A stretch of DNA of 64,000 nucleotides from Seonamhaeicola sp. ML3 (lineage in GTDB: Bacteria > Bacteroidota > Bacteroidia > Flavobacteriales > Flavobacteriaceae): positions 1,240,001 to 1,304,000 of the forward strand of contig NZ_CP096884.1 of the NCBI RefSeq assembly GCF_023273855.1. The letters run 5' to 3'. Below are positions 5,540 to 22,237 of the stretch, in pieces. The notes under the pieces are model-generated. The model saw nothing but the letters and a program-made list of their open reading frames with translations, was not told the origin of the DNA and did not search any database. Every line of letters starts with the position of its first letter. The stretch's first letter is position 1. The position numbers and the translations under genes were made by a program.

Positions 5540-5559
5540 GTTCTATGCGCGCATAAAAA

Positions 5560-5760: not shown

Positions 5761-5768
5761 TTTCTATA

Positions 5769-6320
5769 TTATTTATTATCCGTTAGTAATTTCTTTAATG
5801 TATTCCACCGAGGATCAATATCCTCTTCTTTCTTGTCTTTATTTTCTTTGAACTTTGGGCTTAATTCTTCTAATTTTTCTAGTATTTCAGAATTTAAGGT
5901 GCCGTCTTCAATGCCAGGGTGTACTCTTTTAATTGGTACTGCCAATACAATTAACTCGTATATATATTGCTGAACATTGATTTCATAAGTACCATGCGGT
6001 ACTATTAAAATATCTTCATATTCGTCATTGTATTCATCTCCAAACTTAACCACTAAATCAAACTCATTTTCAATAGTTTGGTTATATGGTTCATTGGTTA
6101 AATCGCAATTAATATTTACGATTCCAGATGCCTTAAAATGTAACTCCAATAATGTTGATTTTTTTTCTAACTGAATATCAACATCAACTTTTACATCGTT
6201 AAACTCTTCATACTCAAAAAAATCAAAGAACGCTTGCTCAATACTATGCTCAAAATGATGCTTCCCTATTTTTAATCCCACAAACTGGATTATAAACTCT
6301 TTCAATGCCTTCATTATCAC
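5769..6320 (-). CDS. YceD/DUF177 family protein
   Basis: Homologue of YceD, a protein encoded next to rpmF and linked to 23S rRNA accumulation in other bacteria and chloroplasts. Support comes from the position just before rpmF, the 183-residue length, the central CDLTNEPYNQTI segment and the acidic C-terminus with DPRWNTLKKLL, a hallmark of this family. The start is MIMK or MK; both ATGs are close together and neither has a Shine-Dalgarno motif. Its biochemical role is not settled in the family. Confidence 0.88.
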   Translation of the reverse strand: MIMKALKEFIIQFVGLKIGKHHFEHSIEQAFFDFFEYEEFNDVKVDVDIQLEKKSTLLELHFKASGIVNINCDLTNEPYNQTIENEFDLVVKFGDEYNDEYEDILIVPHGTYEINVQQYIYELIVLAVPIKRVHPGIEDGTLNSEILEKLEELSPKFKENKDKKEEDIDPRWNTLKKLLTDNK

Positions 6321-6394
6321 ATCTATTTTGAGCCTGCAAATATATGAATTTTTATATTACGCAACATTACTTATAAACATTTTTTTGTTTATAT

Positions 6395-7435
6395 CTATTT
6401 ACGCATCTTTTTTAACGGATTTGCCGTAAGTTGCTCATAATCAATTCTATTTTTATAAATCTGAATAGCCGCATATACTGCCTCCTTGAAAGACCCTGAA
6501 TCTGCAGTTCCTTTTCCTGCAATTTCAAAGGCAGTTCCATGATCAGGAGACGTTCTAATTTTATCTAAACCAGCAGTATAATTTACCCCTTGGCCAAATG
6601 AAAGCGTTTTAAAAGGAATTAAACCTTGATCATGGTATGTAGCCACTATAGCATCGAAATTCTTGTAATTGCTGGAACCAAAAAAGCTATCGGCCGCATA
6701 TGGTCCAAACACCAACTTACCGTCTTCCTTAATTTTTTTAAGTGTGGGACGCAAAATGTCGTCGTCTTCTCTTCCAATAACACCGTTATCTCCAGTATGC
6801 GGATTAATGCCCAAAACAGCTATTTTAGGTTTATTTATCCTAAAATCTTTTTTGAGTGAATTATGAATAGTATTAATCTTTTTTACAATGAGTTCCTCCG
6901 AAATATGAGTGACAACGTCTTTTACAGGCACATGATCGGTTAATAACCCCACCCTTAAATCGCCAGTAACCATAAACATGAGGCTTTCGCCTTTAAGTTC
7001 TTGTGCTAAATAATCGGTATGACCAGGAAATTTAAACGCATCTGACTGAATGTTATATTTGTTTATTGGTGCTGTGACCAATACATGAATTTCATCACGC
7101 TTTAAAGCCTCAACAGCGGCTTTCAAAGACTTAATGGCGTAACTACCAATCTTAATATCTTCCTTACCAAATTCTATCTTAACCGGTTCATTCCAACAAT
7201 TTAGCACATTTACTTTTCCTTGTGCTAATTGATTCATACCATTAATATTGTGAAAATTTATACCCGATTTAAAATGGCCTTTATAAAAATTCATGGATTT
7301 TGCCGAGGCAAATATTACAGGAGTACAAAAGTCTAAAACCCTACTATCTTCAAAGGTTTTTAAGATAATTTCTCCTCCAATTCCATTTAAATCGCCTATG
7401 GATATTCCAACTATTATATTTTCTGCTTTCTTCAT
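6395..7435 (-). CDS. pdxA: 4-hydroxythreonine-4-phosphate dehydrogenase
   Basis: NAD-dependent oxidation of 4-phosphohydroxy-L-threonine in de novo pyridoxal phosphate synthesis (DXP-dependent branch). Metal-binding histidines are visible in FPGHTDYLA, TDHVPVKDV and YHDQGLIPFK, and the active-site strand TSPDHGTAFEIAGKG is intact. It has 346 residues, normal length, and starts with the family pattern VGISIGDLNGIGGEI. It is divergent from ribE across a 65-bp gap that holds promoter-like boxes for both. Confidence 0.97.
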   Translation of the reverse strand: MKKAENIIVGISIGDLNGIGGEIILKTFEDSRVLDFCTPVIFASAKSMNFYKGHFKSGINFHNINGMNQLAQGKVNVLNCWNEPVKIEFGKEDIKIGSYAIKSLKAAVEALKRDEIHVLVTAPINKYNIQSDAFKFPGHTDYLAQELKGESLMFMVTGDLRVGLLTDHVPVKDVVTHISEELIVKKINTIHNSLKKDFRINKPKIAVLGINPHTGDNGVIGREDDDILRPTLKKIKEDGKLVFGPYAADSFFGSSNYKNFDAIVATYHDQGLIPFKTLSFGQGVNYTAGLDKIRTSPDHGTAFEIAGKGTADSGSFKEAVYAAIQIYKNRIDYEQLTANPLKKMRK

Positions 7436-7445
7436 TAAATATGAC

Positions 7446-7453
7446 TACTTTTG
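7446..7453 (+). promoter_or_regulatory. Candidate -7 box of ribE promoter
   Basis: TACTTTTG fits the Bacteroidota TAnnTTTG consensus and lies 47 bp before the ribE ATG. The -33 element is weak, as it would fall inside the 5' end of pdxA. Confidence 0.5.
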
Positions 7454-7471
7454 TCAATAGTTTTAATCCTG

Positions 7472-7479
7472 CAAATTTA
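7472..7479 (-). promoter_or_regulatory. Candidate -7 box of pdxA promoter
   Basis: On the minus strand this reads TAAATTTG, an exact TAnnTTTG match, 36 bp before the pdxA ATG. I see no clear TTTG -33 element. Confidence 0.4.
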
Positions 7480-7500
7480 ACCAAATAAACAGATAATACT

Positions 7501-8094
7501 ATGTTTACCGGAATTATTGAGGATATGGGTGTTATATCGAATTTAAGAGAGGAAAACACCAATCTTCACATAACAGTTAAAAGCAACATTACCTCAGAAT
7601 TGAAAATAGACCAGAGTGTGGCACACAATGGCGTTTGTTTAACTGTAATTGATATAAATAATGACGAATATACCGTTACCGCAATAAAAGAAACTCTTGA
7701 TAAAACTAATTTAAGCTCCCTTAAACTTAACGATAAAGTAAACCTTGAGCGCGCTATGAAATTGGGTGACCGTTTAGATGGCCATATTGTACAAGGGCAT
7801 GTCGACCAAACTGGAATCTGCACTCATGTTAAAGCTGAAAACGGTAGTTGGTTTTTTTCTTTTGAATACGATGCGTCGCTGAATAATTTAACTATTGAAA
7901 AAGGGTCTATTACAATAAATGGAACGAGTTTAACCGTAGTAAACTCTGGGCACAATACTTTTAGTGTAGCCATCATCCCATATACTTACGAGCACACGAA
8001 CTTTAACACTTTTAAAGAAGGAACGGTCGTTAATTTAGAATTTGATGTGTTGGGCAAATATGTTGCGAAATTAGCAACTTTAAAAGACGCCTAA
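7501..8094 (+). CDS. ribE: Riboflavin synthase, alpha subunit
   Basis: Dismutates two molecules of 6,7-dimethyl-8-ribityllumazine to riboflavin. The start MFTGIIE is diagnostic. Two lumazine-binding barrels are seen: domain 1 (about 1-90) and domain 2 starting around GDRLDGHIVQGHVDQTG. It has 197 residues, normal length. It is divergent from pdxA, and its 3' end overlaps the tail of the small convergent proline-rich gene by 4 bp. Confidence 0.97.
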   Translation: MFTGIIEDMGVISNLREENTNLHITVKSNITSELKIDQSVAHNGVCLTVIDINNDEYTVTAIKETLDKTNLSSLKLNDKVNLERAMKLGDRLDGHIVQGHVDQTGICTHVKAENGSWFFSFEYDASLNNLTIEKGSITINGTSLTVVNSGHNTFSVAIIPYTYEHTNFNTFKEGTVVNLEFDVLGKYVAKLATLKDA

Positions 8095-8303
8095 CTTTTT
8101 CTGGAGAGGTTCTTTTTTATCCCGTAAAACAAGGCAACCAGTACACCTAAAAACACACCTCCATCAATAGGAAATCCAGGCGGCGGCGGCGGCGGTGTGC
8201 CAGGCGGTGGCGGCGGTGGCGGCCCCAAATCTTGGCTGAGGCATACAAAACTTATTAATACAAATAAGATTGAGGCAAATATTCTTCTATTTTGTATAGT
8301 CAT
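8091..8303 (-). CDS. Small exported proline-rich protein with PIDGG-TM tail
   Basis: A 70-residue protein with a signal peptide (hydrophobic 8-22, FVCLSQ cleavage region), a GPPPPPPPGTPPPPPPG stretch, then PIDGG, a C-terminal hydrophobic helix (about 49-62) and a basic end KKNLSRKS. This tripartite tail (short motif, membrane helix, basic residues) resembles protein-sorting signals, and Bacteroidota families with a PID motif of this form exist. Nearly all of the mature protein is the signal itself, so there is no obvious cargo. Function unknown. A good promoter match precedes it, and its stop overlaps the ribE 3' end. Confidence 0.7.
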   Translation of the reverse strand: MTIQNRRIFASILFVLISFVCLSQDLGPPPPPPPGTPPPPPPGFPIDGGVFLGVLVALFYGIKKNLSRKS

Positions 8304-8310
8304 TTGTTAA

Positions 8311-8339
8311 CAAATGTATAAAAAAATGTGAGTTTCAAA
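8311..8339 (-). promoter_or_regulatory. Promoter of the small proline-rich gene
   Basis: On the minus strand a TTTG (-33; 8336-8339) is followed after 17 bp by TACATTTG (-7; 8311-8318), matching the Bacteroidota consensus. The -7 box ends only 7 bp before the ATG, so the transcript would be leaderless or nearly so. Confidence 0.5.
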
Positions 8340-8597
8340 AACAATTAAACCCGTTTTTCAATCATAAACATCCTTAAAAAGCATTAAATCACCGATTAAA
8401 TGCGTTATTTTGGGTTGTTTTCCTTACACAGAGTAACGTTAAGTTTTCAAAAAAATTATAGCAATTCATGAAAGTAATATCTTCCAAAACTTTCTTTCTG
8501 TGACAAATATATATATTATTTAAATTGAAAAAACTTTGGCTATATAATTTGATAATGAGTTTATTAACAATTGTAAATTGAGTAGGTTATCATAAAC

Positions 8598-11519
8598 TTA
8601 TTTGAGAGCAGCTTTGAGTATACTAACAGGATGCTTGGATTTCCTCTTTGTCCCATCCCAAATTTGATGCCTGCAACTTGTGCCTGCAGCAGCTATTAAA
8701 ACTGAATTTTCTGTGTTTCTAATTTTAGGGAACAACGTATCTTCCCCTATTTGCATGCTTAATTTATAATGCGCCTTTTCGTAACCAAATGAGCCTGCCA
8801 TACCACAGCAACCAGAATTAATAATACTCACACTGTAATTTTTGGGGAGATTTAACATTAAAAACGTGGATTCGGTACCGCTCAATGCCTTCTGATGGCA
8901 ATGGCCATGAATCTTCACAATCTTTTTTTTAGTAGTAAATTGGTCTGCAGAAATATTACCGTTCGAAATTTCGTTTTTAATAAACTCTTCAATTGTATAG
9001 GTGTTTTTCGAAATTTTTAAGGCTTCCGTTTTATTTTTTGCCAATCTTAAGTATTCATCTCTAAACGATAATATTGCTGAAGGCTCAATACCAACCAATG
9101 GCACATTTGCTGAAATTAGACCAGAAAAAATAGCTGTATTTTTGTTTGCAATAGTCCTGGCTTCATCTAAAAACCCTTTGGAGATGAGACTTCGGCCGCT
9201 CTCTTCGTGGTCAACAATATTCACTTTATAGCCCAGTTTAGAAAGTAGTTCAAAGGTATCTATACCGACCTCAACATCGTAATAATTGGTAAACTCATCT
9301 ACAAACAAATACAGTTCCCCTTTTTTGTATACTTTTTTTTTGGATTGGCTCTTATTTTTACTGTACCACTTTCTAAATGTTTTTGAAGCCAACTTGGGGA
9401 TACTTCTTTTGCTTGCAATTCCTAGAAGGTTCTTGGATAACATTGTATTTAAAACGGCATTGGTAAGTCCCTGAAAAGTACTGCCAATTTTATTATACTT
9501 TACATTGTTTGCCATTATTCGTGTTCCTAACGAAGGTGAATTCTCTTTATAATACTGATACAAAAACTCAGCCTTAAAACTGGCCACATCTACATTACTT
9601 GGACATTCGCTAGCACAAGCCTTACAACTTAAACATAAATCGAAAACCTGTTTTAGCTCCTCATGGTTAAAAGGATTTTCTTTATTAGAATTGGTTAAAA
9701 ACTCTCGTAACGCATTGGCTCTAGCTCTTGTAGTATCCTTTTCATTTTTTGTAGCTCTATAACTAGGACACATGGTGCCTCCAGCCGCAACCGACTTTCT
9801 ACAATCTCCAGAACCGTTACACTTTTCAGCTGCTTTTAAAAGCCCTTCAGAATCTGAAAAATCAAGTATCGTTTTAATTTCTGGCTCTTTTCTATCCGCC
9901 TCATAACGCAAGGATTCATCCATTGGAAAAGCATCAACAATCTTTCCTTTATTGAATAGATTATTAGAATCGAAAACTTGTTTGATTCGTTTTAGCAATT
10001 GGTAATTTTTGTCACCAATCATTAAGGGTAAGAATTCGGCACGTACAATACCATCGCCATGTTCACCACTGAACGATCCTTTATATTTTTTAACCAGTTT
10101 GGCTGTGTTGGTAGTTATCTCTCTAAAAAGCCTTACGTCTTTCGGTTTTTTTAAATTTAAAATAGGGCGCAAATGTATTTCACCAGCACCAGCATGGGCG
10201 TAGTAAACTGCTTTTTGATTATAGCCATCCATCATCTTGGTGAATTCAGCAATATAATTTGGTAAATCCTGTAAATCTACAGCAGTATCTTCTATACATG
10301 CCACGGCTTTAGAGTCTCCAACAATATTTCCCAATAACCCTAAACCAGCCTTTCTTAGCTCTAAGGCTTTCGCTATATCTTCACCGTATAGTTCGGCAAA
10401 AGCATATCCAAAATTGGCCTTTTTTAAATCCTGAATTAGTTTTTGGGCTTGACTTTTAACCAATTCTTTTGAATCTGCTCGTACCTCTAACATCAAAATC
10501 GCTTCAGGGTCACCATCAATAAAGAATCTATTCTTTAATTGTTCACGATTATTCTTTGTACAGTCTAAAATGGTTTTATCCAAAAGTTCGCAAGCATACA
10601 AATTGTGTGTCATGGCAATGACTGTGGCCTCTAAACTTTCCTGAACGGTCTTAAAGTGAGGCACAATTAACACCTCTTCTTTAGGCGGTAAATCGTCTAA
10701 CTGCAATGTAATAGCCGTAGAAAAAGCTAAGGTGCCTTCGCTACCACAAAGTAACTTTGCAATATTGATTTGTTGAACTATGCCATCTTTAGATGTATCA
10801 TCTAAAAGCGCATCAACCGCATACCCTGTATTTCTTCTATGTATGGTTTTATCAGGGAATTCTTTTCGAATCTCCAATTGTGTTTCTGGCTTAGATAGTT
10901 CTTTTACAAGAGATTTATATATTGAACCTTCTAATGTTTCTAATTTAAGTTTCTCTTGAAGCGCTTCTCTAGTTAAGGTTTTAAAAACGACTTCGGAACC
11001 ATCTGACAGTATAGTTTCAATTTCTAAAACCTTGTCTCTAGTAACCCCGTATTTAATAGAAGTTGAACCCGATGAGTTGTTGCCAACCATACCGCCAATC
11101 ATACACCTGTTACTGGTAGATGTATTTGGCGCAAAAAACAATCCGTAGGGTTTAAGAAATAAATTGAGCTCATCTCTTATAATACCTGGCTCTACCGTTA
11201 CGGTCTTTTCTTTTTCGTTAACATTTAAAATACGGGTAAAGTGTTTGGAAACATCCACTATAATACCATCGCCAACACATTGTCCTGCAAGGGAAGTCCC
11301 TGCAGTTCTTGGAATTAGAGTGGTATTATTATCATGGGCAAAGGCAATGAGCTTTTTTATATCGCGCTTGTCTTTTGGGAAAGCTACAGCTAATGGTATT
11401 TTTCGATACACCGAAGCATCAGTTGCATAAATACTTTTATGCAAGTCATCAAAAAACAACTCACCGCTTAATTGAGACGATAGTTTTTTAAGGTTATTTT
11501 CAAGGCTTACCTCCAACAT
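8598..11519 (-). CDS. FAD-linked oxidase / Fe-S oxidoreductase fusion (D-lactate dehydrogenase-like)
   Basis: A 973-residue fusion of a glycolate/D-lactate-oxidase-type flavoprotein and a GlpC-like Fe-S subunit. The PCMH FAD domain (about 35-270) has PRTAGTSLAGQCVG. The FAD-oxidase C-terminal domain follows, with HAGAGEIHLRP and SGEHGDGIVR. The Fe-S part has CNGSGDCRK and CLSCKACASECP (about 540-640), then CCG domains with HGHCHQKAL and SGCCGMAGSFG. Such fusions oxidise D-2-hydroxy acids, commonly D-lactate, and pass electrons to quinones at the membrane. The exact substrate cannot be read from sequence. It is monocistronic; MLEVSLENN at 11519 is the first ATG. Confidence 0.9.
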   Translation of the reverse strand: MLEVSLENNLKKLSSQLSGELFFDDLHKSIYATDASVYRKIPLAVAFPKDKRDIKKLIAFAHDNNTTLIPRTAGTSLAGQCVGDGIIVDVSKHFTRILNVNEKEKTVTVEPGIIRDELNLFLKPYGLFFAPNTSTSNRCMIGGMVGNNSSGSTSIKYGVTRDKVLEIETILSDGSEVVFKTLTREALQEKLKLETLEGSIYKSLVKELSKPETQLEIRKEFPDKTIHRRNTGYAVDALLDDTSKDGIVQQINIAKLLCGSEGTLAFSTAITLQLDDLPPKEEVLIVPHFKTVQESLEATVIAMTHNLYACELLDKTILDCTKNNREQLKNRFFIDGDPEAILMLEVRADSKELVKSQAQKLIQDLKKANFGYAFAELYGEDIAKALELRKAGLGLLGNIVGDSKAVACIEDTAVDLQDLPNYIAEFTKMMDGYNQKAVYYAHAGAGEIHLRPILNLKKPKDVRLFREITTNTAKLVKKYKGSFSGEHGDGIVRAEFLPLMIGDKNYQLLKRIKQVFDSNNLFNKGKIVDAFPMDESLRYEADRKEPEIKTILDFSDSEGLLKAAEKCNGSGDCRKSVAAGGTMCPSYRATKNEKDTTRARANALREFLTNSNKENPFNHEELKQVFDLCLSCKACASECPSNVDVASFKAEFLYQYYKENSPSLGTRIMANNVKYNKIGSTFQGLTNAVLNTMLSKNLLGIASKRSIPKLASKTFRKWYSKNKSQSKKKVYKKGELYLFVDEFTNYYDVEVGIDTFELLSKLGYKVNIVDHEESGRSLISKGFLDEARTIANKNTAIFSGLISANVPLVGIEPSAILSFRDEYLRLAKNKTEALKISKNTYTIEEFIKNEISNGNISADQFTTKKKIVKIHGHCHQKALSGTESTFLMLNLPKNYSVSIINSGCCGMAGSFGYEKAHYKLSMQIGEDTLFPKIRNTENSVLIAAAGTSCRHQIWDGTKRKSKHPVSILKAALK

Positions 11520-11591
11520 GAATTGTTTTAGGCGAATATAATTCTTTAAATAAAGAAAGCCTAGACCATACTTTATTTAGATTAACCTGTT

Positions 11592-12980
11592 TTATTTCTT
11601 TATAGTGGGAACAACGACCTTTTTATTAATCCAACAGGAAAATTTTATCTCTTTTCCAGAACACGCACATAAAAATATCATTTCTTTACTTGGAGCCAAA
11701 GCTTCATATCTTTTGATAGCTCTTTCGGCGTGTTGCTTTATGGTTGGGTCTACTATTAATGCTTTTCTGGCTTCATTTGCTGCGAGCCAATAGACCGCTC
11801 TTTTTTCAAACTCATCTTTACCACAATTATTGGCGCTCATTGCATACATAGACGCTATGGCTAAATGTGGCCTGCCGTTAGACGGATTAAGCTTTAAGGC
11901 TCTTCTGTAATAAATTCGAGCACGGGAATAGTCTGCTTTTCTCATTAGTGTAAAACCAATTCTGTTGGCTAATTTTGATTTTTTAAAAGTATCTGTTTCT
12001 AATTCGTAAGCCTTGGCCAAGTAATTCATTGCTTCTTCAGTTTTTCCCTTTTTCACAAGGATAATAGCCACAAAAAATTTGGTGTCTGCAGAAGGTGCTA
12101 CCTCATCATAGGCTATGGCTAACTTTTCATATAAAGGATCTTCAGTACATTCTTTATGGTACATTCTACTTACAGCACGTTTTAGCCAAATAGAATCTTT
12201 TTTATGTGCCTCAAAATCTTTTGTATATAATTGGATTAGATTTGAACAATCAGCTATTGTTGCAATCATTTTATTGATGTTTTCCGAAACTAAACTGTAA
12301 TTTTTTAGATAGTTCTTATACGACGATTTTGCTTTAATTTCTGTTTTGTTTAGCGGTATCTTTTTGTTCTGTTTTTCAACAAGTTTATTCAGTTTAAGGG
12401 AATAATTCTTCACCTCATTTTCTATTTTATCATTAATGTCATCGTATTTGTCAAAAACTTCTTTTAGACTTTTTTTACCAGCTTCATTAAGCTCCATAAT
12501 CAAAGAAAAATAAGTGTAAAGGGCTTTTGGGTGATTGAAGGTCTTTTTATCCATTTGAAACGCATTATCAAAACCATGATACAGTTCTTCGGTAGATTTT
12601 TCAAGAACATCCCTATTATCATACTTAAGCTGAAATGATTTGGCGCTGTATTGTCCTTTCGGCGTTTTATTTGGAAAATAGTTAAGCCTACTTTCCCAAA
12701 CCCCTAATAGTTCATTCAAAAGTCGTTTACGCGCTTCACCTTTTGTCCTCTCAATCTTATGCTTCAATATTTTTTCGCCATCGCTATAAATGGCAATATT
12801 TAATTCCGGACAACTGTCCTTAACAAATTTCCAATTATCGTAGGCTATATCGAAGTTTTTTACTGTTACATCTTGATGAAAAAGAGACAATTTTGTTTTG
12901 CATTCTATGTCCTTTTGAGCAAAAATTAAACTTACGTTTATCAAAAAGCAAACAAAGAATAATGTAAACTTGAATTTCAT
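11592..12980 (-). CDS. Secreted TPR-repeat protein
   Basis: A 462-residue protein with a Sec signal peptide (1-21, ending LIFAQ), a long lysine-rich helical middle region and TPR-like repeats between about 295 and 400 (for example GKTEEAMNYLAKAYELE and RARIYYRRALKLNPSNGRP). Bacteroidota proteins of this layout are periplasmic or outer-membrane scaffolds, sometimes linked to gliding or secretion, but no partner is adjacent. The C-terminus contains FLCACSGKEIKF, an unusual Cys pair in an otherwise Cys-poor tail. Function is not assigned. Confidence 0.8.
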   Translation of the reverse strand: MKFKFTLFFVCFLINVSLIFAQKDIECKTKLSLFHQDVTVKNFDIAYDNWKFVKDSCPELNIAIYSDGEKILKHKIERTKGEARKRLLNELLGVWESRLNYFPNKTPKGQYSAKSFQLKYDNRDVLEKSTEELYHGFDNAFQMDKKTFNHPKALYTYFSLIMELNEAGKKSLKEVFDKYDDINDKIENEVKNYSLKLNKLVEKQNKKIPLNKTEIKAKSSYKNYLKNYSLVSENINKMIATIADCSNLIQLYTKDFEAHKKDSIWLKRAVSRMYHKECTEDPLYEKLAIAYDEVAPSADTKFFVAIILVKKGKTEEAMNYLAKAYELETDTFKKSKLANRIGFTLMRKADYSRARIYYRRALKLNPSNGRPHLAIASMYAMSANNCGKDEFEKRAVYWLAANEARKALIVDPTIKQHAERAIKRYEALAPSKEMIFLCACSGKEIKFSCWINKKVVVPTIKK

Positions 12981-13152
12981 AATAGGTGTTTTTAGTTAGT
13001 ACTTGATGAAAAATACCACAAAACATGTACCAAAACTCCAAATATTGTTAGACGCAACGTTCTTTCATATTGCATTTAAATAGGTATTCTTTCAAAAGTA
13101 TTCAACGAAATAGCTAAATTTACCTACACTAATTCGTGAAACGAGCTAATCT

Positions 13153-13776
13153 ATGTCGCTTTTTGAGTCCGATTTAAACGACGAACAATTATTAGGAAAG
13201 TACCTTGATAAAATCTATGAAGAAATCAACATCCCAATTGAAAGAACACATGATACCGAACTTCAATTTAGAGGAGTTGATATTATTTATAAGAGCTCAA
13301 AAGGACCTGTTTACATCGACGAGAAATCGCAACTACACTATATAAACAAAGATTTACCAACTTTTACTTTTGAGCTGTCTTTTCTGAAAAACGGAAAAGA
13401 AAAAAGGGGTTGGTTCTTGGATAAAGAAAAAATTACCGACTACTATTTTCTAGTGACCGGCATTTATGTAAATAAGGACAAACAATTAAACTCTGGACTT
13501 AAATCCTGCAAAATAACCTCGGTAAACCGATTAAAATTAATAGAGTTACTAAAAGACAAAGGACTTAGTCCTTTAAAACTGAACACCTATTCTGAAACAA
13601 TTAGGTCAGATGAAAACGCTGCATTTAAAACTGAAATCCCCGAATTAAAGCCGAAAACCGAAGGTTGTTTGGTGTATTCTAATCAATTGGACGAAAAACC
13701 AATTAACCTCATGCTACGACTTAATTTTCTGATTCAGAAAGGTGTTGCAAAGCAGATTTATCCTGCGACTCTTTAA
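13153..13776 (+). CDS. Probable type II restriction endonuclease (PD-(D/E)XK-like)
   Basis: A 207-residue protein I do not match to a named enzyme. It contains FRGVDIIYKSSKGPVYIDEKSQ-like spacing: Asp43 in GVD, then 12 residues, then Asp56-Glu57-Lys58. This is the D...(D/E)xK arrangement of PD-(D/E)XK nucleases, set on predicted beta strands. It converges with a C5-cytosine methyltransferase gene and overlaps it by 56 bp, the expected layout for a cognate restriction enzyme. It is therefore inferred to cut the sequence that the neighbour methylates. The target site is not predictable. It could instead be a nicking or accessory nuclease. Confidence 0.65.
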   Translation: MSLFESDLNDEQLLGKYLDKIYEEINIPIERTHDTELQFRGVDIIYKSSKGPVYIDEKSQLHYINKDLPTFTFELSFLKNGKEKRGWFLDKEKITDYYFLVTGIYVNKDKQLNSGLKSCKITSVNRLKLIELLKDKGLSPLKLNTYSETIRSDENAAFKTEIPELKPKTEGCLVYSNQLDEKPINLMLRLNFLIQKGVAKQIYPATL

Positions 13777-15136
13777 TGCACTTGGAAAGCACCACACCTA
13801 TGCGCTCTACAATACCAACTACTAAAGCATTTCCCATAAAGAAAGCCCGTTTAGCATCGGTAACACGCTCATGTTTGGTATGATTATCAGGGAACATATT
13901 TAGCCGTTCTAACTCCAAAGGTGTTAATCTTCTATACAAAACATCTTTCTCCAATTCAACGAGATGTTTAAATCTTGAAGCGCCCGAACCTCCCTCGGAA
14001 GTGATAATGGTTCTGGATGGTAAGTTAATATCATCTGATAAGCTCAAAGGACCTTCTGTGTAATAAAAAGCACCTTTTGAAGACACCCTTTTTTCTGCCT
14101 TTCGGCCTTTAAGGTATTTCCATTTATCTAATTCCGTAAGTAAAACGGCCTCATCCCTGGAATTCATTTGAAGGTAGGAAAGCGATATACTAGGTTTTTG
14201 TTCTTTAATTATCGGAGTTTTTAGAACTTTTTTGCTGTCAACAAAAAATTCGTCACCAACTTTGCCATGGTCTATCAATACATCTTTTAGACTACCAAAA
14301 TCACTGTAGTTAATGTTGTTATCTGGCTTAGGCGTATAATCGAAAGTTAAAATATTTCGCCCAACCATAGAACCGCAATTGTAGAATTTACCGTGTACAA
14401 AATCGTTGGAGATTTCAACAGCACTCCCCTTAAGTTCGAATGCTTTTCTATCACCTTTTATTTGCGAGGGAAAGGATTTACCAAGCACGCTATTTTGTGA
14501 AATCCAATCAACACCCTCTTCTATGGTTAAACCACTTGCTTTGTGAGCACCAAAAATAAAGACACGTCTTCGCCGTTGTGGCATACCGTAATCGGCTGCA
14601 TTGATAACTTTCCACTCCACATCATAACCCAAATCGCTTAAAGTAGCCAAAAGTATCGCAAAATCGCGACCTCTTTTATTTACTGGAGATTTTAGCAACC
14701 TGTCTACATTTTCAAGCAAGATGAATTTTGGCCTTTTTACTTCTAAAATTCTATGAATGTTCCACCAAAGCACACCTTTTTTACCTTCAATGCCGTTGGT
14801 GTTTACACCGGCTACCGAATAATCCTGACATGGAAATCCACCTACCAGCAAATCGTGGTCTGGGATATTCGAATCGACTTTTGTGTCTGAAACTTCATTA
14901 CTGGCAATGGTATCGATATCATCTCCGCAATGATTTGCCCCTTGCCATTTATCTTTATAGACCAAATTAGCATGTTGAATACTGGTTGATGGTTCCCATT
15001 GATTAGACCAAACCACTTCGTAATTAGATTTTAAATCCTTGGTATAATTGGAAGAAGCCGATTTCCCGTTCCAACCCTCTAGACCAAGTCTAAAACCGCC
15101 TACGCCAGCAAATAATTCAACAACTTTAATACTCAT
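13721..15136 (-). CDS. DNA (cytosine-5-)-methyltransferase, type II
   Basis: A 471-residue C5-methyltransferase that transfers methyl from SAM to cytosine in a specific DNA site. Motif I is VELFAGVGGFRLGLE (6-20). Motif IV is GGFPCQDYS with catalytic Cys103. Motif VI is LLENVDRL (Glu142). Motif VIII is PQRRRRVFIFG (186-196), and the late motifs include FMGNALVVGIVERI. The variable target-recognition region is about 200-400. The tail-to-tail 56-bp overlap with the nuclease gene marks a type II R-M pair. The methyltransferase is transcribed from its own promoter on the other strand, which allows it to be made independently of the nuclease. Confidence 0.95.
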   Translation of the reverse strand: MSIKVVELFAGVGGFRLGLEGWNGKSASSNYTKDLKSNYEVVWSNQWEPSTSIQHANLVYKDKWQGANHCGDDIDTIASNEVSDTKVDSNIPDHDLLVGGFPCQDYSVAGVNTNGIEGKKGVLWWNIHRILEVKRPKFILLENVDRLLKSPVNKRGRDFAILLATLSDLGYDVEWKVINAADYGMPQRRRRVFIFGAHKASGLTIEEGVDWISQNSVLGKSFPSQIKGDRKAFELKGSAVEISNDFVHGKFYNCGSMVGRNILTFDYTPKPDNNINYSDFGSLKDVLIDHGKVGDEFFVDSKKVLKTPIIKEQKPSISLSYLQMNSRDEAVLLTELDKWKYLKGRKAEKRVSSKGAFYYTEGPLSLSDDINLPSRTIITSEGGSGASRFKHLVELEKDVLYRRLTPLELERLNMFPDNHTKHERVTDAKRAFFMGNALVVGIVERIGVVLSKCIKESQDKSALQHLSESEN

Positions 15137-15589
15137 ATAAGTACAGGTTTATGTCTTTCAAAAATAGGATTATTTATAAGGTGTTCTTTGGGGAAGAAGC
15201 GCTTTCCTTTCAATTTTTATTAACAGTGTGCAAAAGGATGATTCATTGAATAAAAAAAGCCCAAACTACATTTGTAATTTAGGTCTTTTCTGGTTTAGCT
15301 AGGCTTGAACCATGGAAGTTAGAATAACACACATTGATTTGCATGCTTTCATTTTAAATAGTTGATTTTTAGATTTCCATTATTTTAAAGTTATAGCTTT
15401 TAATAAAAATCTGATTTTCAATTTTTGAAGTTTCTCCAGCCTCCTAACTAGTTAATCCTAATTCATTTAAACATGTTTTAAATATTCTTTTTACTTGTAT
15501 TTAGTTCAATAATGGCAGCTTCAAGCATCTTATTTTCATAAGAATACTTGAAACCGCCTTGATCAAATAAAACTAAAACAAACTAACTT
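15137..15589. other. Intergenic region with decayed tRNA 3' end and terminator
   Basis: No gene is seen in these 453 bp. At 15252-15283 there is an exact copy of the A-run and hairpin found downstream of the tRNA-Met gene at 43.1 kb. It is followed by a degenerate tRNA 3' end (about 15291-15316) that keeps the T-loop string GGCTTGAACC. This is the leftmost of four copies and marks the putative outer edge of the island cluster. The rest is AT-rich with no recognisable signal. Confidence 0.6.
15252..15289 (-). terminator. Copy 1 of the tRNA-Met terminator hairpin
   Basis: Same hairpin as at 43101-43139, with a 13-bp stem including G-U pairs and a loop of about 4 nt. In the minus direction it runs into seven T. 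The tRNA that once fed it is degraded here, so it is a relic, though it could still stop transcripts. Confidence 0.6.
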
Positions 15590-17383
15590 TTATTGACTGT
15601 CGTCTATTACAGTTAACGGTGGTACGTTTTGCTCTGCACCAGGAAATCCTTTATTTTGATTAATAACTCCTTTTGAGTTATTCGTTATCGTAACAGCAGG
15701 AATTGGCCACAAAACAAAGCGTGGTTCAATGGTCGCCTGAACACCTCTAATAGTGCTACCTACTTTATAAAATATGTTTTTATCGATAACATGGTCGTAA
15801 TAAAAACTTTTCTCTGATAGATTATCTATTGAATATCCATTAAGATTATTGTCGGCCATAATTAAGGAAATACGTGTTAATTCTACCTTTCTAGGTTCTT
15901 CTAGATATAATTCTTTAGCACGTTCTTCTAAAATCTTCACTATAGTTACATCACCACCACTTATATCGCTTGCATTAGCTCTATTTCTAACTTCATTAAT
16001 GTCATCTGCCGCTGCACCTGTATTCCCTAACCAGTAATGGGCTTCTGCACGAAGTAAATAGGTTTCCGCCAAACGGTAAATATAACCATTACCGAACCCG
16101 CCATCGGGTCTTGAATCATCTGATTCGTCATGTGCAATAAATGTTTTGTAATGAGGGAAAGCATAGTAAAATTGCAAAGAGTCTTGGGCTGGATCTCCAA
16201 AATTATTTGGATTAACCGGCTGTAAGTAATCTGCCGAACTTGGATTGTTATAAACTAACTCATCCTTATCCACCCAGTTACCATCGCTACGTCTCAAATC
16301 ATTAGCATCATCCCACATTTCATAAATGTAATAAGGAGTCGCTCTTGACCATGCATTACCTCTTCCAATAGTGTCAATCATTGTTGTCCATACACCGCTT
16401 ATCCTGTCAATACTTCCTCTCGCGCCGTTACTATCTCTAACTGCACCATTCCACCACGCAGGAACAAAATCTCTGTGGGTTGCACGACCTGAACCTCCGC
16501 TGTTAGCGCTTTGTGGTGCTTCAAATCGATCTACAAAGCCTAATATCGTTTCGGTATTTGCTCCATTGAATACATTCTCTGGTCTTGCCAAATCCCATAT
16601 GTAATCTCTATCAGGATTATTGGCATCTACACCAAATCTATTCTCTACCAAGCTAAAAGGACCGTCAATAATTTCTGTTGCCGATTGTACTGCCCCAGAA
16701 AAATTACTGTTAGCTAATTGAATTTTAGTAAGTAAATGATAACCCGCCCATTTAGTTTCTGCACCTTCAACATTCGATTCTGGAAGCCATTGTACAGCAA
16801 ATTCCATGTCGCTTTCTATTTTATCTAAAATAGTTTTTCTGGCGTGGGTGAAATAATCTAATTTGGGTCCTGTAATTACTTGTCCAACAAACGGTACATC
16901 GCCATAAAGATGTACCAATTGGTAATACCAATACGACCTATGGAAATAAGCTGCTGCTGTAATGCTATTTCTCTCTTCTTCCGATTCTAAATCTGCTCTA
17001 TCTGCATAGAAAAGAAGTAAATTGGCAGTACTTATAGGGATTGAATAGGCTCTGTTAAAATAGTCTAGCATCTTGTAACCTCCATCACTATTGGGTGTAA
17101 ACTGTAATGCCAGGTTACGAGGCACACGGTTATTTCTTGCTGGTGCAAAACCTATATCTGTGGTGATTGACTGTGAGCAAATGCCACTACGTTCGCCATC
17201 ATATTGCCATCTCAATTCTTTTCTCAAAGTAATTAATAATGCGTCAAAACCTGATGTATCAACTAACGTATTATCTGGTGATAAAAATGATAACGGTTCG
17301 GGCTCTAAAAATTCTTCATCACAAGAGACGGTCACTGTGAGGGCTAAAATTGATAATATAAAATATTTAAACTTACTTTTCAT
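15590..17383 (-). CDS. SusD/RagB-family nutrient-binding lipoprotein
   Basis: Surface lipoprotein that forms the lid of a SusC channel and binds the imported glycan or other ligand. Lipobox VTVSC ends at Cys21, followed by DEEFLEPEP, the usual SusD opening. The helical TPR-like core and C-terminal motifs RLAETYLLRAEAHYW and LEERAKELYLEEPRKVELTR are clear. At 597 residues it has a typical length. It sits 17 bp downstream of the susC-like gene on the same strand. The ligand is not predictable because no glycoside hydrolase, sulfatase or peptidase is adjacent. Confidence 0.95.
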   Translation of the reverse strand: MKSKFKYFILSILALTVTVSCDEEFLEPEPLSFLSPDNTLVDTSGFDALLITLRKELRWQYDGERSGICSQSITTDIGFAPARNNRVPRNLALQFTPNSDGGYKMLDYFNRAYSIPISTANLLLFYADRADLESEEERNSITAAAYFHRSYWYYQLVHLYGDVPFVGQVITGPKLDYFTHARKTILDKIESDMEFAVQWLPESNVEGAETKWAGYHLLTKIQLANSNFSGAVQSATEIIDGPFSLVENRFGVDANNPDRDYIWDLARPENVFNGANTETILGFVDRFEAPQSANSGGSGRATHRDFVPAWWNGAVRDSNGARGSIDRISGVWTTMIDTIGRGNAWSRATPYYIYEMWDDANDLRRSDGNWVDKDELVYNNPSSADYLQPVNPNNFGDPAQDSLQFYYAFPHYKTFIAHDESDDSRPDGGFGNGYIYRLAETYLLRAEAHYWLGNTGAAADDINEVRNRANASDISGGDVTIVKILEERAKELYLEEPRKVELTRISLIMADNNLNGYSIDNLSEKSFYYDHVIDKNIFYKVGSTIRGVQATIEPRFVLWPIPAVTITNNSKGVINQNKGFPGAEQNVPPLTVIDDSQ

Positions 17384-17400
17384 AATTTCATGTTTTTTTA

Positions 17401-20400
17401 TTAAAGGCTAAATCTAAATCCAATGGAAAAAATACGTGGTAAAGGCGAGTTGTTAGACTCAGGATCTAAACCTTCCCATTTAGTAAAAGTGTATAGATTT
17501 CTTACTGAAGCATACATACTTGCGCTATCGAATTTTACTTTATCTAATATTGTTTTTGGAAGATTGTAAGATAAAGTAACATCCTGTATTCTTAAATAAG
17601 AGCGGTCTCTAAAAACATCAAGACCTGTTTCAAATGCTTGATCATTTTGTAATAAGCTACCGTACTCATTAGATGGATTTTCTGCAGTCCAATACGGTAA
17701 ATTATAAGTGTTTATACGATCATATAGATTCGTTTGAGGATGTGTGAGTTGGTTTAAATTACCCTTATGCCCAAACTCTCCTCTTAAAAATGTAGATAGA
17801 TTGAAATTTTTCAGGAATGTAAAATCGTTTCTTAAACCCAATCGCCAACGCGGTGTAGTATAACCAATAAACTGTTTATCTTCAAGTTGTGTAAATTGGT
17901 CGTCTCCATTAATATCCTCTGCTTTGTAATCTCCCGGAACTTGACCAAATACGGCTGCCTCTGCTTCTTCTCCTTGCTGCCATACTCCTGTAATATTATA
18001 CTCCCAAATCACATCGATGTCTTGACCAACAAACCAACCATTTTGGACATCGTTAACAGGTCGGGTAACTTCTTCACCATTTATGGTAACAGTTTCTGTG
18101 TCATTAAAAAGGTCGACAATTTCGTTGCGGTTTAATGAGAATACTACCCCAGAATTCCATCTAAAATTAGGTTTGTTTATATTAACAGAGTTTATAGTTA
18201 CCTCAACACCTTTGTTCTGTACTTCGCCTATATTAGTGTTAACATTTGTAAAACCAGAAATTGCAGGCAACCCTCTATTTACTAAAAGGTCTCTAGTATT
18301 CGCTTTATATACTTCTACGGTACCATTAATCCTGTTGCTTAATAAGCCAAAGTCAAGCCCAAGGTTAAAAGCTTCTGTCTGCTCCCAACGCAAATTAGGA
18401 TTAGCCAAAGTACCACCAAAAATAACGCCTTGTGCTACACCACTTTCAGTTAAATATTGGTTACTGTTAAGACGTGACAGAGCGGCATAATTACCTATAG
18501 ACCTGTTACCGTTTTTACCCCAAGAAAACCTAAGTTTAAGGTTGTTTACAAAATCTCCTTTAGGGAAAAAAGATTCTTTAGAGATTACCCAACCTAATGC
18601 TGCTGCTGGAAATGTGGCTCTGGGATTTCTTTCTCCAAAGGCAGAAAATCCATCTCTCCTAACTGATGCAGTTAGCAAATACTTATCCTTAAACTTGTAG
18701 TTTACCCTTCCCATAAGAGCATCTCCTCGTCTTGTTTGATCATTATTATCTATAACACGAAATTCAGGGTTTCCTAATTGAAGCCCATTAAATCCTAAGT
18801 TTTCATTAGGTGCAAAATCTGAAGCTTGCTGAAAAGACCTTCTACTCGACAATTCTTCAACATTCCATAAGAAAGTTGCGTCGAAAGTATGATTACCAAA
18901 CTCTTTTTTCCAACTTAAAATATTATCTACCATCCACTCATGCTGATGAAAGTCCACTCTACTACCAAGACCTACACCTTGGGTTCTAGTACTTGATGGG
19001 AAAAACTGATAATTTCTATCGAAGTCAAAACGATTTTGATAAGATACTCTAAAATTAAACCCATATGGAAGTTTAATATTTGCGTAAAGCACTCCAAACA
19101 GTCCATTTCTTATATCTTCTTCCTGTTTGGCATAGTGGTTGGCTAATGGGTTTTGAGCTGGCTGATAACCATGGGGTATAAGTACAAAATCTCCATTCTC
19201 ATCAATGTCGGTTCCATACGGGCTTTGTCTAAATACGCTTCTACTTCGGTTAGCAAAATCGAAACCGGCAGGAACAGCACTAAAATCTTGACTAGAAAAT
19301 TGTGTATTTACACCAAAACTAAACCAGTCATTTATTGCCGTATCTATATTTACACGGGTACGGTATGCTTTAAATTCATCACCTACTATTACCCCTTCAT
19401 TATCTGTATATCCAAAGGATAAGAAAAAGGAAGTTTTATTCTTTTTTCCTGACACATTTATATCTGCTGATTGGCGAATGCCGCTTTGAGTGACTTTATC
19501 GTACCAGTTGGTAGTTCTACCGTTTACGAAATTGTCAATTTCAATATCAAAGAAATTTAATCTGTTCAACCATTCAAGCGTATCATCAGCATTTGAGTTA
19601 TTGTTATAATTCCTCCATTGGTCCAAAGTTACCCCAGACGGTAAATCATTTGGATTGTTATAAAAACCCTCTCCTGCTCCTGGATCTACTAAAACGGAAT
19701 GATCTCTTCTAAAATCTAAGTATTCTTCTGCACTGAAAGGTCTTATATGATTCCCTATTGTAGACACCCCAGTTTCTAAAGCTATGTTGACTTTAATTTT
19801 ATCGGTACCCTTTTTAGTGGTTAATATTACAACACCATTAGCACCTTGCGCTCCATAAACAGCAACAGAACTTGCATCTTTTAATACATCTACAGATGCT
19901 AAATCGTTAGGGTTTATATCAGATAGTGCGCCTCGGTAGATTACTCCATCTAAAACAATTAAAGGTGTTGTGGTTGCTGTTAGGGAATTAGCACCTCTTA
20001 TTTCTAACGAACCTCCACCTGCAGCAGTTGCTCCTTGTGTTGAATTAAAACCAGCTACTGTACCATTAAGAAGCTCTACAACGTTGGTAGCCGACTGGCT
20101 TTCATATTTAGCAGCGTCTAATCGTGTTACCGCTCCTGTTAAATCACTTTTTTTAGCAGTACCATATCCAATAACGATAACTTCATCTAAGTTTGCAGCG
20201 TCTTCCTTTAAAATTACAGTAATTTTACTTTGCGAATTGAGTTGGATTTCTTGAGTTAAAAACCCAAGATAAGAAACTACTAAAACAGTATTTTCATCGT
20301 TAACTTCTAATTTGAAATTTCCATCAAAATCAGTTTGTGCACCATTTGAAGTTCCTTTTTCTAATATATTGGCTCCTGGCAAAGGTTGGCCATTTTCGTC

Positions 20401-20832
20401 ATTTACCGTACCTGTTACCTTGAACTTTTCTTGCTTTACTGGTTTTAGCGTATTCGATTCTGAACTATTGGACGGGCTTATAATAATTGATTTGTTATCG
20501 GAAAGTCTAAAAGCAACATTACTGCCAGAAAGAATATTATCCAATAATACTTCTAATTCAATAAATCCCTTTTTAAGTTCTACTTTCGGTGCATTTTTAA
20601 ATAAATCTTCAGGATAAATGAAACTGAATCCTGACTCCTTTGTAATTGTCTTAAAAGCTTGATATACCGTTACACTTTTATCTTTCTTGATTTCTATTTG
20701 CTCTTGCGAAAAACCATTTGAAGTGTTAAAGCCAAATACGGCTACACTCAAAAAAAAGATAAATGTTCTCATAACAATAATTAGTAATCGTTTTCGCAAC
20801 TGAAAACGACAATGAATAAATTTAATTTCCAT
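17401..20832 (-). CDS. SusC/RagA-family TonB-dependent transporter with STN domain
   Basis: Outer-membrane TonB-dependent channel of 1143 residues. The order is a signal region (MRTFIFFLSV at about 21-43), an STN domain (about 45-115) that contacts an anti-sigma factor, a carboxypeptidase-like CNA_B repeat (about 135-215, GQPLPGANILEKGTSNG), the plug (DEVIVIGYGTAKKSDLTGAV onward) and the beta-barrel ending SIGFRFSL. The STN domain matches the adjacent FecR and ECF sigma genes, so transport of ligand probably switches on its own transcription through that cascade. The longer start at 20832 gives the usual extended N-terminus; the internal Met21 is an alternative. Confidence 0.96.
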   Translation of the reverse strand: MEIKFIHCRFQLRKRLLIIVMRTFIFFLSVAVFGFNTSNGFSQEQIEIKKDKSVTVYQAFKTITKESGFSFIYPEDLFKNAPKVELKKGFIELEVLLDNILSGSNVAFRLSDNKSIIISPSNSSESNTLKPVKQEKFKVTGTVNDENGQPLPGANILEKGTSNGAQTDFDGNFKLEVNDENTVLVVSYLGFLTQEIQLNSQSKITVILKEDAANLDEVIVIGYGTAKKSDLTGAVTRLDAAKYESQSATNVVELLNGTVAGFNSTQGATAAGGGSLEIRGANSLTATTTPLIVLDGVIYRGALSDINPNDLASVDVLKDASSVAVYGAQGANGVVILTTKKGTDKIKVNIALETGVSTIGNHIRPFSAEEYLDFRRDHSVLVDPGAGEGFYNNPNDLPSGVTLDQWRNYNNNSNADDTLEWLNRLNFFDIEIDNFVNGRTTNWYDKVTQSGIRQSADINVSGKKNKTSFFLSFGYTDNEGVIVGDEFKAYRTRVNIDTAINDWFSFGVNTQFSSQDFSAVPAGFDFANRSRSVFRQSPYGTDIDENGDFVLIPHGYQPAQNPLANHYAKQEEDIRNGLFGVLYANIKLPYGFNFRVSYQNRFDFDRNYQFFPSSTRTQGVGLGSRVDFHQHEWMVDNILSWKKEFGNHTFDATFLWNVEELSSRRSFQQASDFAPNENLGFNGLQLGNPEFRVIDNNDQTRRGDALMGRVNYKFKDKYLLTASVRRDGFSAFGERNPRATFPAAALGWVISKESFFPKGDFVNNLKLRFSWGKNGNRSIGNYAALSRLNSNQYLTESGVAQGVIFGGTLANPNLRWEQTEAFNLGLDFGLLSNRINGTVEVYKANTRDLLVNRGLPAISGFTNVNTNIGEVQNKGVEVTINSVNINKPNFRWNSGVVFSLNRNEIVDLFNDTETVTINGEEVTRPVNDVQNGWFVGQDIDVIWEYNITGVWQQGEEAEAAVFGQVPGDYKAEDINGDDQFTQLEDKQFIGYTTPRWRLGLRNDFTFLKNFNLSTFLRGEFGHKGNLNQLTHPQTNLYDRINTYNLPYWTAENPSNEYGSLLQNDQAFETGLDVFRDRSYLRIQDVTLSYNLPKTILDKVKFDSASMYASVRNLYTFTKWEGLDPESNNSPLPRIFSIGFRFSL

Positions 20833-20927
20833 AAATTTGATTGTGTTAGTTTAGTTAAACATTAAATTAATACTACAGTAATTGGGATAAAGTGAAACCG
20901 CCAAATTTCGTATACTTTATCCCTTTT

Positions 20928-22085
20928 CTATTTTATGATAATGGTTCTATCATCTATTTTATAATCTTTGATTTTATTAAAATTCTTAATAGCATCTAAT
21001 ATTTCTTCTATTTTTAAGTTACGTTTCAAAGAACCATTAAACCTATTTCCTTTGACTTTTTCACTTTCAAAAACAAAATCAATATCATACCATCGAGATA
21101 ATACTTTAACGATATCGCTTAACGGCATCTTTTCAAAAGTGAATATGCCTTCTTTCCAAGATATTTCATTATAAACATCTACTAATTTAACATCAATATT
21201 ATTGGTGTTAACATCTAGTATTGATTGTTCTGATGGTTTTAAAACTTGATTTGTTCCCTCTACGTTAACAGTAACTTTACCTTCTACTAAAGTGGTAAAT
21301 ACCATAACCTCGTCTTTGTAGGCTCTTACATTAAATTCTGTACCCAAAACTTCGATATGTTGAGATGCATTTATAACTTTAAACTTATCGCCATTATGAT
21401 TTGAGCTAGGGGAAATATCAAAATAGGCTTCTCCATATACAAGCTCTACTTCGCGTGTTTGTCCTTTTATAAAGTTTTTAGGGTATTTTAATTGCGTCTC
21501 GGAATTTAACCACACCTGTGTACCATCAGAAAGTAGCACACGAAACTGCCCGCCTCTTGGAATAGTTAAATAATTATAAGCTAACTTGGCTTTATTTTCA
21601 TCAATGGTATCATATATAATCTCTTCTCCATTACTGTTCACATCTTTAGTTTTGAACTCCTCACCTTTAACCAACTTTACTTGAGATCCATCCTCTAGTG
21701 TGAGCACTGCCTTATTTGTACCATGATAGATTTTTGAATCTACAACAACTGGGGTAAGTTGCTGTGATTTATCTTTCGTGTCTCTGCCAATAAAAAAGTA
21801 TGCTGTTGAAATGAAAAGTATAACTGCCGCAGCATATTTCATTACATTACGTCTTAATGACAATCGCTTATCCTTCTTAATCTTTATTAATAGGTTGTTC
21901 TTGGTTCGTTCGGTGTTGAATTCTTTCATAAAATCATCAACTAAATAGTTAATTTCTATATAATCATTCAGTAATTGATCATACTCACTTTTATCATACC
22001 ATAAATTCAACTCATCCCATTCTTTTTTATTAATAGATTGGTTTAAAAACTTTATGATAAGTTCCTCTATATTTTTTGGTATCAT
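20928..22085 (-). CDS. FecR-family anti-sigma factor
   Basis: Inner-membrane anti-sigma factor of 385 residues: a cytoplasmic N-terminal domain (1-80) that would hold the ECF sigma factor, one membrane helix (about 83-99, YAAAVILFISTAYFFIG), a periplasmic FecR domain (about 190-290, with GGQFRVLLSDGTQVWLNSE) and a C-terminal DUF4974-type secretin-like domain (about 315-385). It is divergent from the sigma gene and directly upstream of the STN-bearing SusC gene, which completes a three-part signalling unit. The same strand and 95-bp spacing suggest that it may be transcribed with susC-susD. Confidence 0.95.
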   Translation of the reverse strand: MIPKNIEELIIKFLNQSINKKEWDELNLWYDKSEYDQLLNDYIEINYLVDDFMKEFNTERTKNNLLIKIKKDKRLSLRRNVMKYAAAVILFISTAYFFIGRDTKDKSQQLTPVVVDSKIYHGTNKAVLTLEDGSQVKLVKGEEFKTKDVNSNGEEIIYDTIDENKAKLAYNYLTIPRGGQFRVLLSDGTQVWLNSETQLKYPKNFIKGQTREVELVYGEAYFDISPSSNHNGDKFKVINASQHIEVLGTEFNVRAYKDEVMVFTTLVEGKVTVNVEGTNQVLKPSEQSILDVNTNNIDVKLVDVYNEISWKEGIFTFEKMPLSDIVKVLSRWYDIDFVFESEKVKGNRFNGSLKRNLKIEEILDAIKNFNKIKDYKIDDRTIIIK

Positions 22086-22237
22086 TTTTAAAGTTTTATA
22101 TATATTACATTGCTCTTTTGTAAGACCCCCAATATTTCATGTCTTTTTTTGATTTTATATTAAATTATTTGACATATTTAGGGCATATTAATATTTTTAG
22201 ATAAAATATCTAGTGTTTGGCTATTCATACATTTTTT

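What the first reader, a model, noticed from the sequence alone, without database searches (positions are those of the whole stretch)
13153..15136. Convergent, overlapping R-M pair with an unrecognised nuclease
The nuclease is short (207 residues) with GVD...DEK spacing and shares its last 56 bp with the methyltransferase on the other strand. Overlapping 3' ends make loss of one gene alone harmful and may cause antisense control. The nuclease matches no enzyme I know, so its recognition sequence may be new. The pair sits beside the oldest tRNA relic, perhaps as a remnant of a further island.
Basis: partly seen in the sequence, partly recalled or inferred. Interest (0 to 1): 0.5.

Follow-up and report, generated by a model that had tools for sequence, protein, structure and literature searches.

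The report
GATC restriction pair with new nuclease
Two overlapping bacterial genes most likely form an ordinary DNA defence pair, a cutter and a protecting enzyme, but the cutter belongs to a protein family without a name in the libraries searched and very probably reads the well-known site GATC rather than a new one.

Summary
In detail: a 207-aa ORF (R, 13153-13776, +) and a 471-aa C5-cytosine methyltransferase (M, 13721-15136, -) converge and share 56 bp. It is most likely a Type II restriction-modification pair. R has no match in Pfam, NCBIfam or PDB sequences, but is a real family: of 172 relatives found, 80 were kept, and E11, G41, D43, D56, E57, K58 are invariant in 83 sequences. A confident model (pLDDT 95.8) resembles PD-(D/E)XK nucleases. 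R follows M: 71 of 80 loci have M adjacent (48 tandem, 23 convergent, all 23 overlapping), and the other 9 genomes carry M elsewhere. The site is probably not new. This M lineage also sits beside Sau3AI-family and BglII/BstYI-family nucleases, pointing to GATC, which is the most avoided 4-mer in the window's genome (observed/expected 0.36). The comparison across genomes agrees but is statistically weak. R is best read as a third, unrelated nuclease family serving one GATC methyltransferase lineage, sometimes stacked with a BglII-like or Sau3AI-like nuclease, sometimes unlinked from M. Antisense control is untested. The tRNA relic is real; membership in a further island is undecided.

The parts
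13153..13776 (+). R: 207-aa putative restriction endonuclease of an unnamed family; likely metal site D43, D56, K58, with E11 also invariant
   Evidence: ORF; invariant residues in 83 sequences; AlphaFold2 pLDDT 95.8, pTM 0.90; structural resemblance to PD-(D/E)XK nucleases
13721..15136 (-). M: 471-aa C5-cytosine DNA methyltransferase, predicted to modify GATC
   Evidence: PF00145, TIGR00675, PADLOC MTase_II; PCQ, ENV and QRRRR motifs conserved; relatives beside Sau3AI- and BglII-family nucleases
13721..13776 (.). 56-bp overlap of the 3' ends of R and M
   Evidence: all 23 convergent relatives overlap by 4-50 bp
15252..15316 (-). degenerate copy of the tRNA-Met 3' end and its terminator region; not part of the R-M function
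   Evidence: 85% over 67 columns to 43101-43167; terminator-like stem at 15260-15283

Best explanation
A Type II restriction-modification system. M methylates the cytosine of GATC (5mC) in host DNA; R, a small PD-(D/E)XK nuclease probably acting as a dimer with a D43/D56/K58 metal site, cuts unmethylated GATC in incoming DNA. Shown here: both ORFs, the conserved pairing of R with M, the conserved nuclease residues, a confident model, GATC-type nucleases beside relatives of M, and GATC avoidance in the genome. Inferred: catalysis, dimerisation, the exact site and methylated base, and defence as the role. The convergent overlap is a conserved layout in part of the family; most relatives are tandem.
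For: M adjacent to R in 21 of 22 family loci and 71 of 80 named loci; the other 9 genomes have M on another contig. All 22 R genomes lie among the 46 of 299 with M. Invariant D43, D56, E57, K58; model pLDDT 95.8 with PD-(D/E)XK-like matches. M's relatives sit beside Sau3AI-family nucleases and BglII-family ones. GATC is the lowest 4-mer in 204 kb of the own genome (187 against 519 expected).
Against: No biochemistry or methylome. Structural scores are middling (VIA Z at most 7.3; no PDB Foldseek match at E <= 0.001). Across genomes the GATC contrast is weak: R+M against no-M p 0.07, 6 of 36 no-M genomes also have GATC as their lowest palindrome, and several R+M genomes show no avoidance (0.97, 0.99, 1.12). 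A paper states that GATC is avoided in bacterial genomes also as a Type IIM site (PMC6286503, passage). M's recognition region is only about 36% identical to its relatives.
Confidence: 0.75

Rival explanations
1. A Type II R-M pair, but M and R read a different or longer site that only overlaps GATC.
For: M's recognition region is much less conserved than its core (36% against 68% to R-partnered relatives); the BglII/BstYI family reads longer sites that contain GATC (recalled); other short palindromes such as CGCG (0.64) are avoided too.
Against: GATC is low in all 16 flanking contexts in the own genome (0.19-0.72), which fits a 4-base site; Sau3AI-family nucleases (GATC, recalled) are the commonest named partners of M's relatives.
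Confidence: 0.15
2. R is not a restriction enzyme but an accessory nuclease, for instance a repair nickase that handles mismatches left by deaminated 5mC (as Vsr does beside Dcm), or a helper of another nuclease.
For: One M relative has a very-short-patch-repair gene beside it; 7 of 80 R loci, and the Psychrobacillus plasmid, have a BglII-like ORF directly upstream of R, and L042 has M, R and a Sau3AI-like gene in a row; solitary R with M elsewhere fits a helper too.
Against: No Vsr match. GATC is lower, not higher, with R+M (median 0.59) than with orphan M (0.85; p 0.045), the opposite of what a repair enzyme should do. In 64 of the 71 loci with M adjacent, neither my BglII-like nor Sau3AI-like profile found a second nuclease in the locus.
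Confidence: 0.1
3. A decayed or silent pair: M is active or not, R no longer cuts.
For: 15 of 24 genomes with M but no R have no other profiled nuclease near M, so loss of the nuclease seems common.
Against: Both window ORFs are full length with all conserved residues; GATC is strongly avoided in this genome.
Confidence: 0.06

Closest known systems
Sau3AI-type R-M systems (GATC; C5 methyltransferase with MutH-like nuclease, NF040973)
   Same: M belongs to a lineage whose other members lie beside Sau3AI-family nucleases; predicted site GATC and 5mC.
   Different: R is 207 aa, without any MutH/Sau3AI match; the Sau3AI-family proteins here are about 460-490 aa.
BglII/BstYI nuclease family (PF09195)
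   Same: Lies directly upstream of R in 7 of 80 loci and on the Psychrobacillus plasmid; M relatives on two plasmids have one.
   Different: R does not match PF09195; no match was found in the own genome, although that search's control rang nowhere.
DpnI catalytic domain and other PD-(D/E)XK nucleases (PvuII, Hjc, RecU, I-Ssp6803I)
   Same: Best structural scores (DpnI Z 7.3, 138 residues, rmsd 4.3; PvuII 6.6; Hjc 6.7); catalytic residues in the expected hairpin.
   Different: About 6-12% identity; scores are tied and under 8, so no particular kinship is shown. DpnI cuts methylated GATC (PMC4081073, passage), which a pair with M protecting the host would not.

Membership tests
Type II restriction-modification system | DNA methyltransferase with complete catalytic motifs | tested here: met
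   PF00145 over residues 3-449; PCQ, ENV, QRRRR motifs conserved
Type II restriction-modification system | Nuclease gene linked to the methyltransferase gene across relatives | tested here: met
   71 of 80 named loci, 21 of 22 family loci; 9 of 80 have M on another contig
Type II restriction-modification system | Site-specific cleavage blocked by the methyltransferase | not testable with these tools
   needs enzyme or methylome
GATC specificity | Methylation or cutting at GATC | tested here: inconclusive
   indirect: partner nucleases of M relatives; avoidance strong in the own genome, weak across genomes
PD-(D/E)XK superfamily | D...(D/E)XK residues on adjacent strands | tested here: met
   D43 just before strand 44-48; D56-E57-K58 in strand 51-59; invariant in 83
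PD-(D/E)XK superfamily | Fold match to solved members | tested here: inconclusive
   VIA Z up to 7.3, nearly all top rows nucleases, none at Z 8; no Foldseek PDB match at E <= 0.001
Sau3AI-type methyltransferase lineage (M) | Relatives linked to a Sau3AI-family nuclease | tested here: met
   9 of 24 genomes with M but no R; 7 of 10 plasmid records viewed; not compared with M.Sau3AI itself
Sau3AI/MutH nuclease family (R) | Match to PF02976 or NF040973 | tested here: not met
   no match up to E 1
BglII/BstYI nuclease family (R) | Match to PF09195 | tested here: not met
   no Pfam match up to E 1
Vsr repair endonuclease (R) | Match to the Pfam Vsr model | tested here: not met
   no Pfam match up to E 1

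The most novel reading that the evidence does not exclude
R is a plug-in nuclease family that can live on GATC methylation supplied by any M of the lineage: alone in some genomes, in place of Sau3AI-like nucleases in others, and in the BglII-like/R loci acting jointly with the second nuclease (a two-nuclease or heterodimeric cutter). One methyltransferase lineage would then be the shared antidote of three unrelated nucleases.
Probability: 0.25. Interest if true: 0.55.

Novelty: new member of a known kind. Interest (0 to 1): 0.42.

Why it matters
It adds a nuclease family, unnamed in Pfam, NCBIfam, PHROGs and solved-structure sequences as searched here, to the enzymes that probably cut GATC. 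It also offers a natural experiment: one methyltransferase lineage with three unrelated nucleases, with orphan methyltransferases and unlinked nucleases in related genomes. That makes partner exchange in restriction systems, and the cause of site avoidance, directly testable. For the strain, GATC methylation would be the practical key to transforming it.

Tried and rejected
Libraries for R: Pfam, NCBIfam and PDB sequences gave nothing; PADLOC and PHROGs only chance-level matches; an alignment profile against PDB sequences nothing credible (best E 0.044). A viral-contig scan matched 98 stretches by pattern and confirmed none.

Loss of GATC through 5mC deamination alone: not favoured, since orphan-M genomes (median 0.85, 12) do not differ from no-M genomes (0.86, 36; p 0.56). 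Against my reading: enlarging the no-M set from 18 to 36 genomes weakened R+M against no-M from p 0.003 to 0.07. Of 40 no-M stretches asked for, 4 were under 8 kb and dropped (two each). Eight of the 9 Sau3AI genomes and 12 of the 15 orphan-M genomes were sampled. In the same test (R or Sau3AI against the rest) AATT, CATG, TATA and TTAA also differ at p under 0.05 with smaller shifts, so p 0.009 for GATC does not survive correction for 16 words. Kinship of the genomes is not corrected anywhere.

Overlap lengths first computed (4-77 bp) were wrong, because some tblastn hits run past M's stop; recounted from the ORFs (4-50 bp). One tandem locus there gives a 615-bp M/R overlap, and L094's M is cut by the contig end; neither was examined further.

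No BglII-like remnant was found in the window with the two-protein query (best E 0.1, elsewhere). The own-genome PF09195 search found nothing but its control rang nowhere, so absence is not shown; NF040973 was absent, its control ringing only weakly. No Rfam match at 12900-23200. Promoter-like sites near the pair (4) were fewer than in shuffles. L065's neighbouring methyltransferase (32% identity) is not of this lineage, so L065 counts as without adjacent M. The DpnI match was not read as kinship, as rows tie. Several solitary-R genomes are MAGs, where contamination could place R or M.

Papers: ten searches listed no title or abstract start describing this nuclease. REBASE cannot be reached here, so these genes may stand there as unnamed entries. 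Passages seen: PMC3874152, PMC4081073, PMC6286503; otherwise listings only.

Full report
What is there. The two ORFs are as described: R, 207 aa, 13153-13776 (+), and M, 471 aa, 13721-15136 (-), with a 56-bp overlap of their 3' ends. M is a C5-cytosine DNA methyltransferase (PF00145 E 1.1e-62; TIGR00675 E 3.4e-68; PADLOC MTase_II E 7.4e-142). R matches nothing in Pfam, NCBIfam or PDB sequences and only chance-level entries in PADLOC and PHROGs.

R is a real, conserved family. In 299 genomes of the window's taxonomic family, 23 match R at E <= 0.001; one (G193) is a weak partial hit inside a 1107-aa frame and is set aside, leaving 22 with the own genome. A scan of one genome per species gave 172 relatives, of which the best 80 were kept; they are mainly Flavobacteriaceae, with other Bacteroidota and one Campylobacterota MAG. 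One more homologue lies on a Psychrobacillus plasmid and a partly matching one on an unverified phage contig. In 83 sequences (window, the 80, and these two) E11, G41, D43, D56, E57, K58, T70, F71, E74, W87 and K93 never vary.

R looks like a nuclease. AlphaFold2 with 47 rows gave pLDDT 95.8 and pTM 0.90. D43 stands just before strand 44-48, and D56-E57-K58 in strand 51-59: the PD-(D/E)XK layout. Foldseek found no PDB match at E <= 0.001; the first was I-Ssp6803I at 0.02, followed by RecU, Hjc, MutH and MspI chains. The second look gave DpnI Z 7.3, SPARDA complexes 6.9-7.2, Eco15I 6.8, Hjc 6.7, PvuII 6.6. These are tied and below 8: they suggest the superfamily and no particular relative. Against predicted viral structures ten matches reached E <= 0.001, mainly uncharacterised phage proteins.

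R and M belong together. M is next to R in 21 of 22 family loci: 19 tandem and 2 convergent (window and L002). In the 80 named loci M is adjacent in 71: 48 tandem with M first, and 23 convergent. The other 9 (L034, L040, L047, L052, L057, L063, L065, L068, L092) have no adjacent M of this lineage, but all 9 genomes carry one on another contig; some are MAGs. At E <= 1e-55, 46 of the same 299 genomes have M, and all 22 R genomes are among them (hypergeometric 7e-21, kinship not corrected).

The overlap. All 23 convergent relatives overlap, by 4 to 50 bp counted from the ORFs; the window's 56 bp is the longest, and its M (471 aa) and that of L024 (468 codons, 50 bp) are longer than the other 21 (406-419 codons). 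In the R tree the layouts are clustered (10 changes for all groups against a shuffled mean of 30), and the window groups with Winogradskyella sp. IP29b_bin.133 (L024; R 61%; M 73%). As most relatives are tandem and both M without R and R without adjacent M occur, the overlap is not what holds the pair together. Antisense RNAs are documented for EcoRI and Eco29kI (PMC3874152, passages), in another layout; nothing here tests it.

Which site. Of the 46 M genomes 24 lack R. In 9 of them a Sau3AI-family ORF lies in the stretch fetched around M (up to 9.5 kb); in 15 neither R, Sau3AI-like nor BglII-like ORFs were found there (stretches). Three Sau3AI-like proteins from M loci, one of them from a solitary-R genome (L175), match NF040973 at 463-547 bits, cut-off 300. 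Of 10 plasmid records viewed around M relatives (of 23 found), 6 have an annotated Sau3AI/MutH-family nuclease, 1 more matches NF040973 (L211, 534 bits), 1 has a BglII/BstYI-family nuclease, and 2 have neither. The Psychrobacillus plasmid has M, a PLD protein, a BglII/BstYI-family nuclease and an R homologue. Sau3AI reads GATC, and BglII/BstYI enzymes read sites around GATC (recalled). M's recognition region is equally close to R-partnered (median 36%) and Sau3AI-partnered (35%) relatives, and less close to two control methyltransferases (21%, over fewer columns).

Site avoidance. In 204 kb of the window's genome GATC occurs 187 times against 519 expected, the lowest of the 4-mers with more than 50 expected, the next being CGCG at 0.64; all 16 flanking contexts are low. 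No GATC lies between 12137 and 15561, so none in the pair. Across genomes the median observed/expected is 0.59 with R+M (22), 0.60 with Sau3AI+M (8), 0.85 with orphan M (12) and 0.86 with no M (36). Pooled, GATC ranks first of 16 palindromes in the first two groups and in the tandem, convergent and solitary R loci, but 6th with orphan M and 4th with no M. The statistics are modest: R+M against no-M p 0.07; R+M against orphan M p 0.045; R or Sau3AI against the rest p 0.009, uncorrected for 16 words or kinship. Some R+M genomes show no avoidance (0.97, 0.99, 1.12), and 6 of 36 no-M genomes have GATC as their lowest palindrome. A paper reports that sites of orthodox Type II systems are commonly avoided in prokaryotic genomes, and that GATC is avoided too as a Type IIM site (PMC6286503, passages), so avoidance alone does not name the enzyme. 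That it follows the nuclease rather than M also speaks against R being a repair enzyme.

Two-nuclease loci. In 7 of 80 loci (convergent L024, L025, L032, L051, L054, L059; solitary L034) and on the Psychrobacillus plasmid a BglII-family ORF lies directly upstream of R (PF09195 over its cut-off in all 8). In L042 the order is M, R, Sau3AI-family (472 bits). The window lacks the BglII-like neighbour that its closest relative has.

Surroundings. Synteny with one congener (G494) runs from window 2397 to 12923 and stops just before R; its 19.5-kb stretch holds no R or M. So the pair begins a strain-variable stretch. The tRNA-Met copies (intact 43140-43214; 27597-27618; 23037-23049; degenerate 15252-15316) are real, and a tyrosine-recombinase gene lies at 40446-41639. 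The pair lies beyond the outermost copy, and no further copy was found on its other side, so membership in a further island cannot be told. In 37 of 48 tandem loci and 12 of 15 orphan-M loci, but 1 of 23 convergent ones, M sits near the same GNAT gene or 124-aa gene, which suggests a long-settled tandem locus in those lineages and a more mobile convergent form.

Verdict. A Type II R-M pair, probably for GATC, with a nuclease family that the libraries searched here do not name: a new member of a known kind.

Noticed in passing
window 43140-43214, 43501-43522, 27597-27618, 23037-23049, 15252-15316; 40446-41639: Intact tRNA-Met with a row of partial 3'-end copies downstream, a copy of its first 22 bases at 43501-43522, and a tyrosine-recombinase gene close by: looks like successive integrations at one tRNA.
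   Followed up: partly
L105:4965-5588 (phage contig MT836495.1): An R homologue with GID and DEK motifs on an unverified phage contig from human faeces, with no M found on the 7.6-kb stretch.
   Followed up: partly
L196:5438-5812 and similar loci: A conserved 124-aa gene beside M in many Maribacter-like genomes; its TPDIVA...YYFEISLKS stretch looks nuclease-like, with only a chance-level Hjc match (E 0.087).
   Followed up: no
L042:1410-4744: M, R and a Sau3AI-family nuclease in a row: two nucleases with one methyltransferase.
   Followed up: partly
L104:1489-3860 (Psychrobacillus glaciei plasmid pPB01): PLD protein (RE_NgoFVII match), BglII-family nuclease and R homologue in a row, with the methyltransferase divergent.
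   Followed up: partly
window 11592-12980; own genome 618303-619679: The TPR-protein gene at the edge of the variable stretch has a 57% identical second copy elsewhere in the genome.
   Followed up: no
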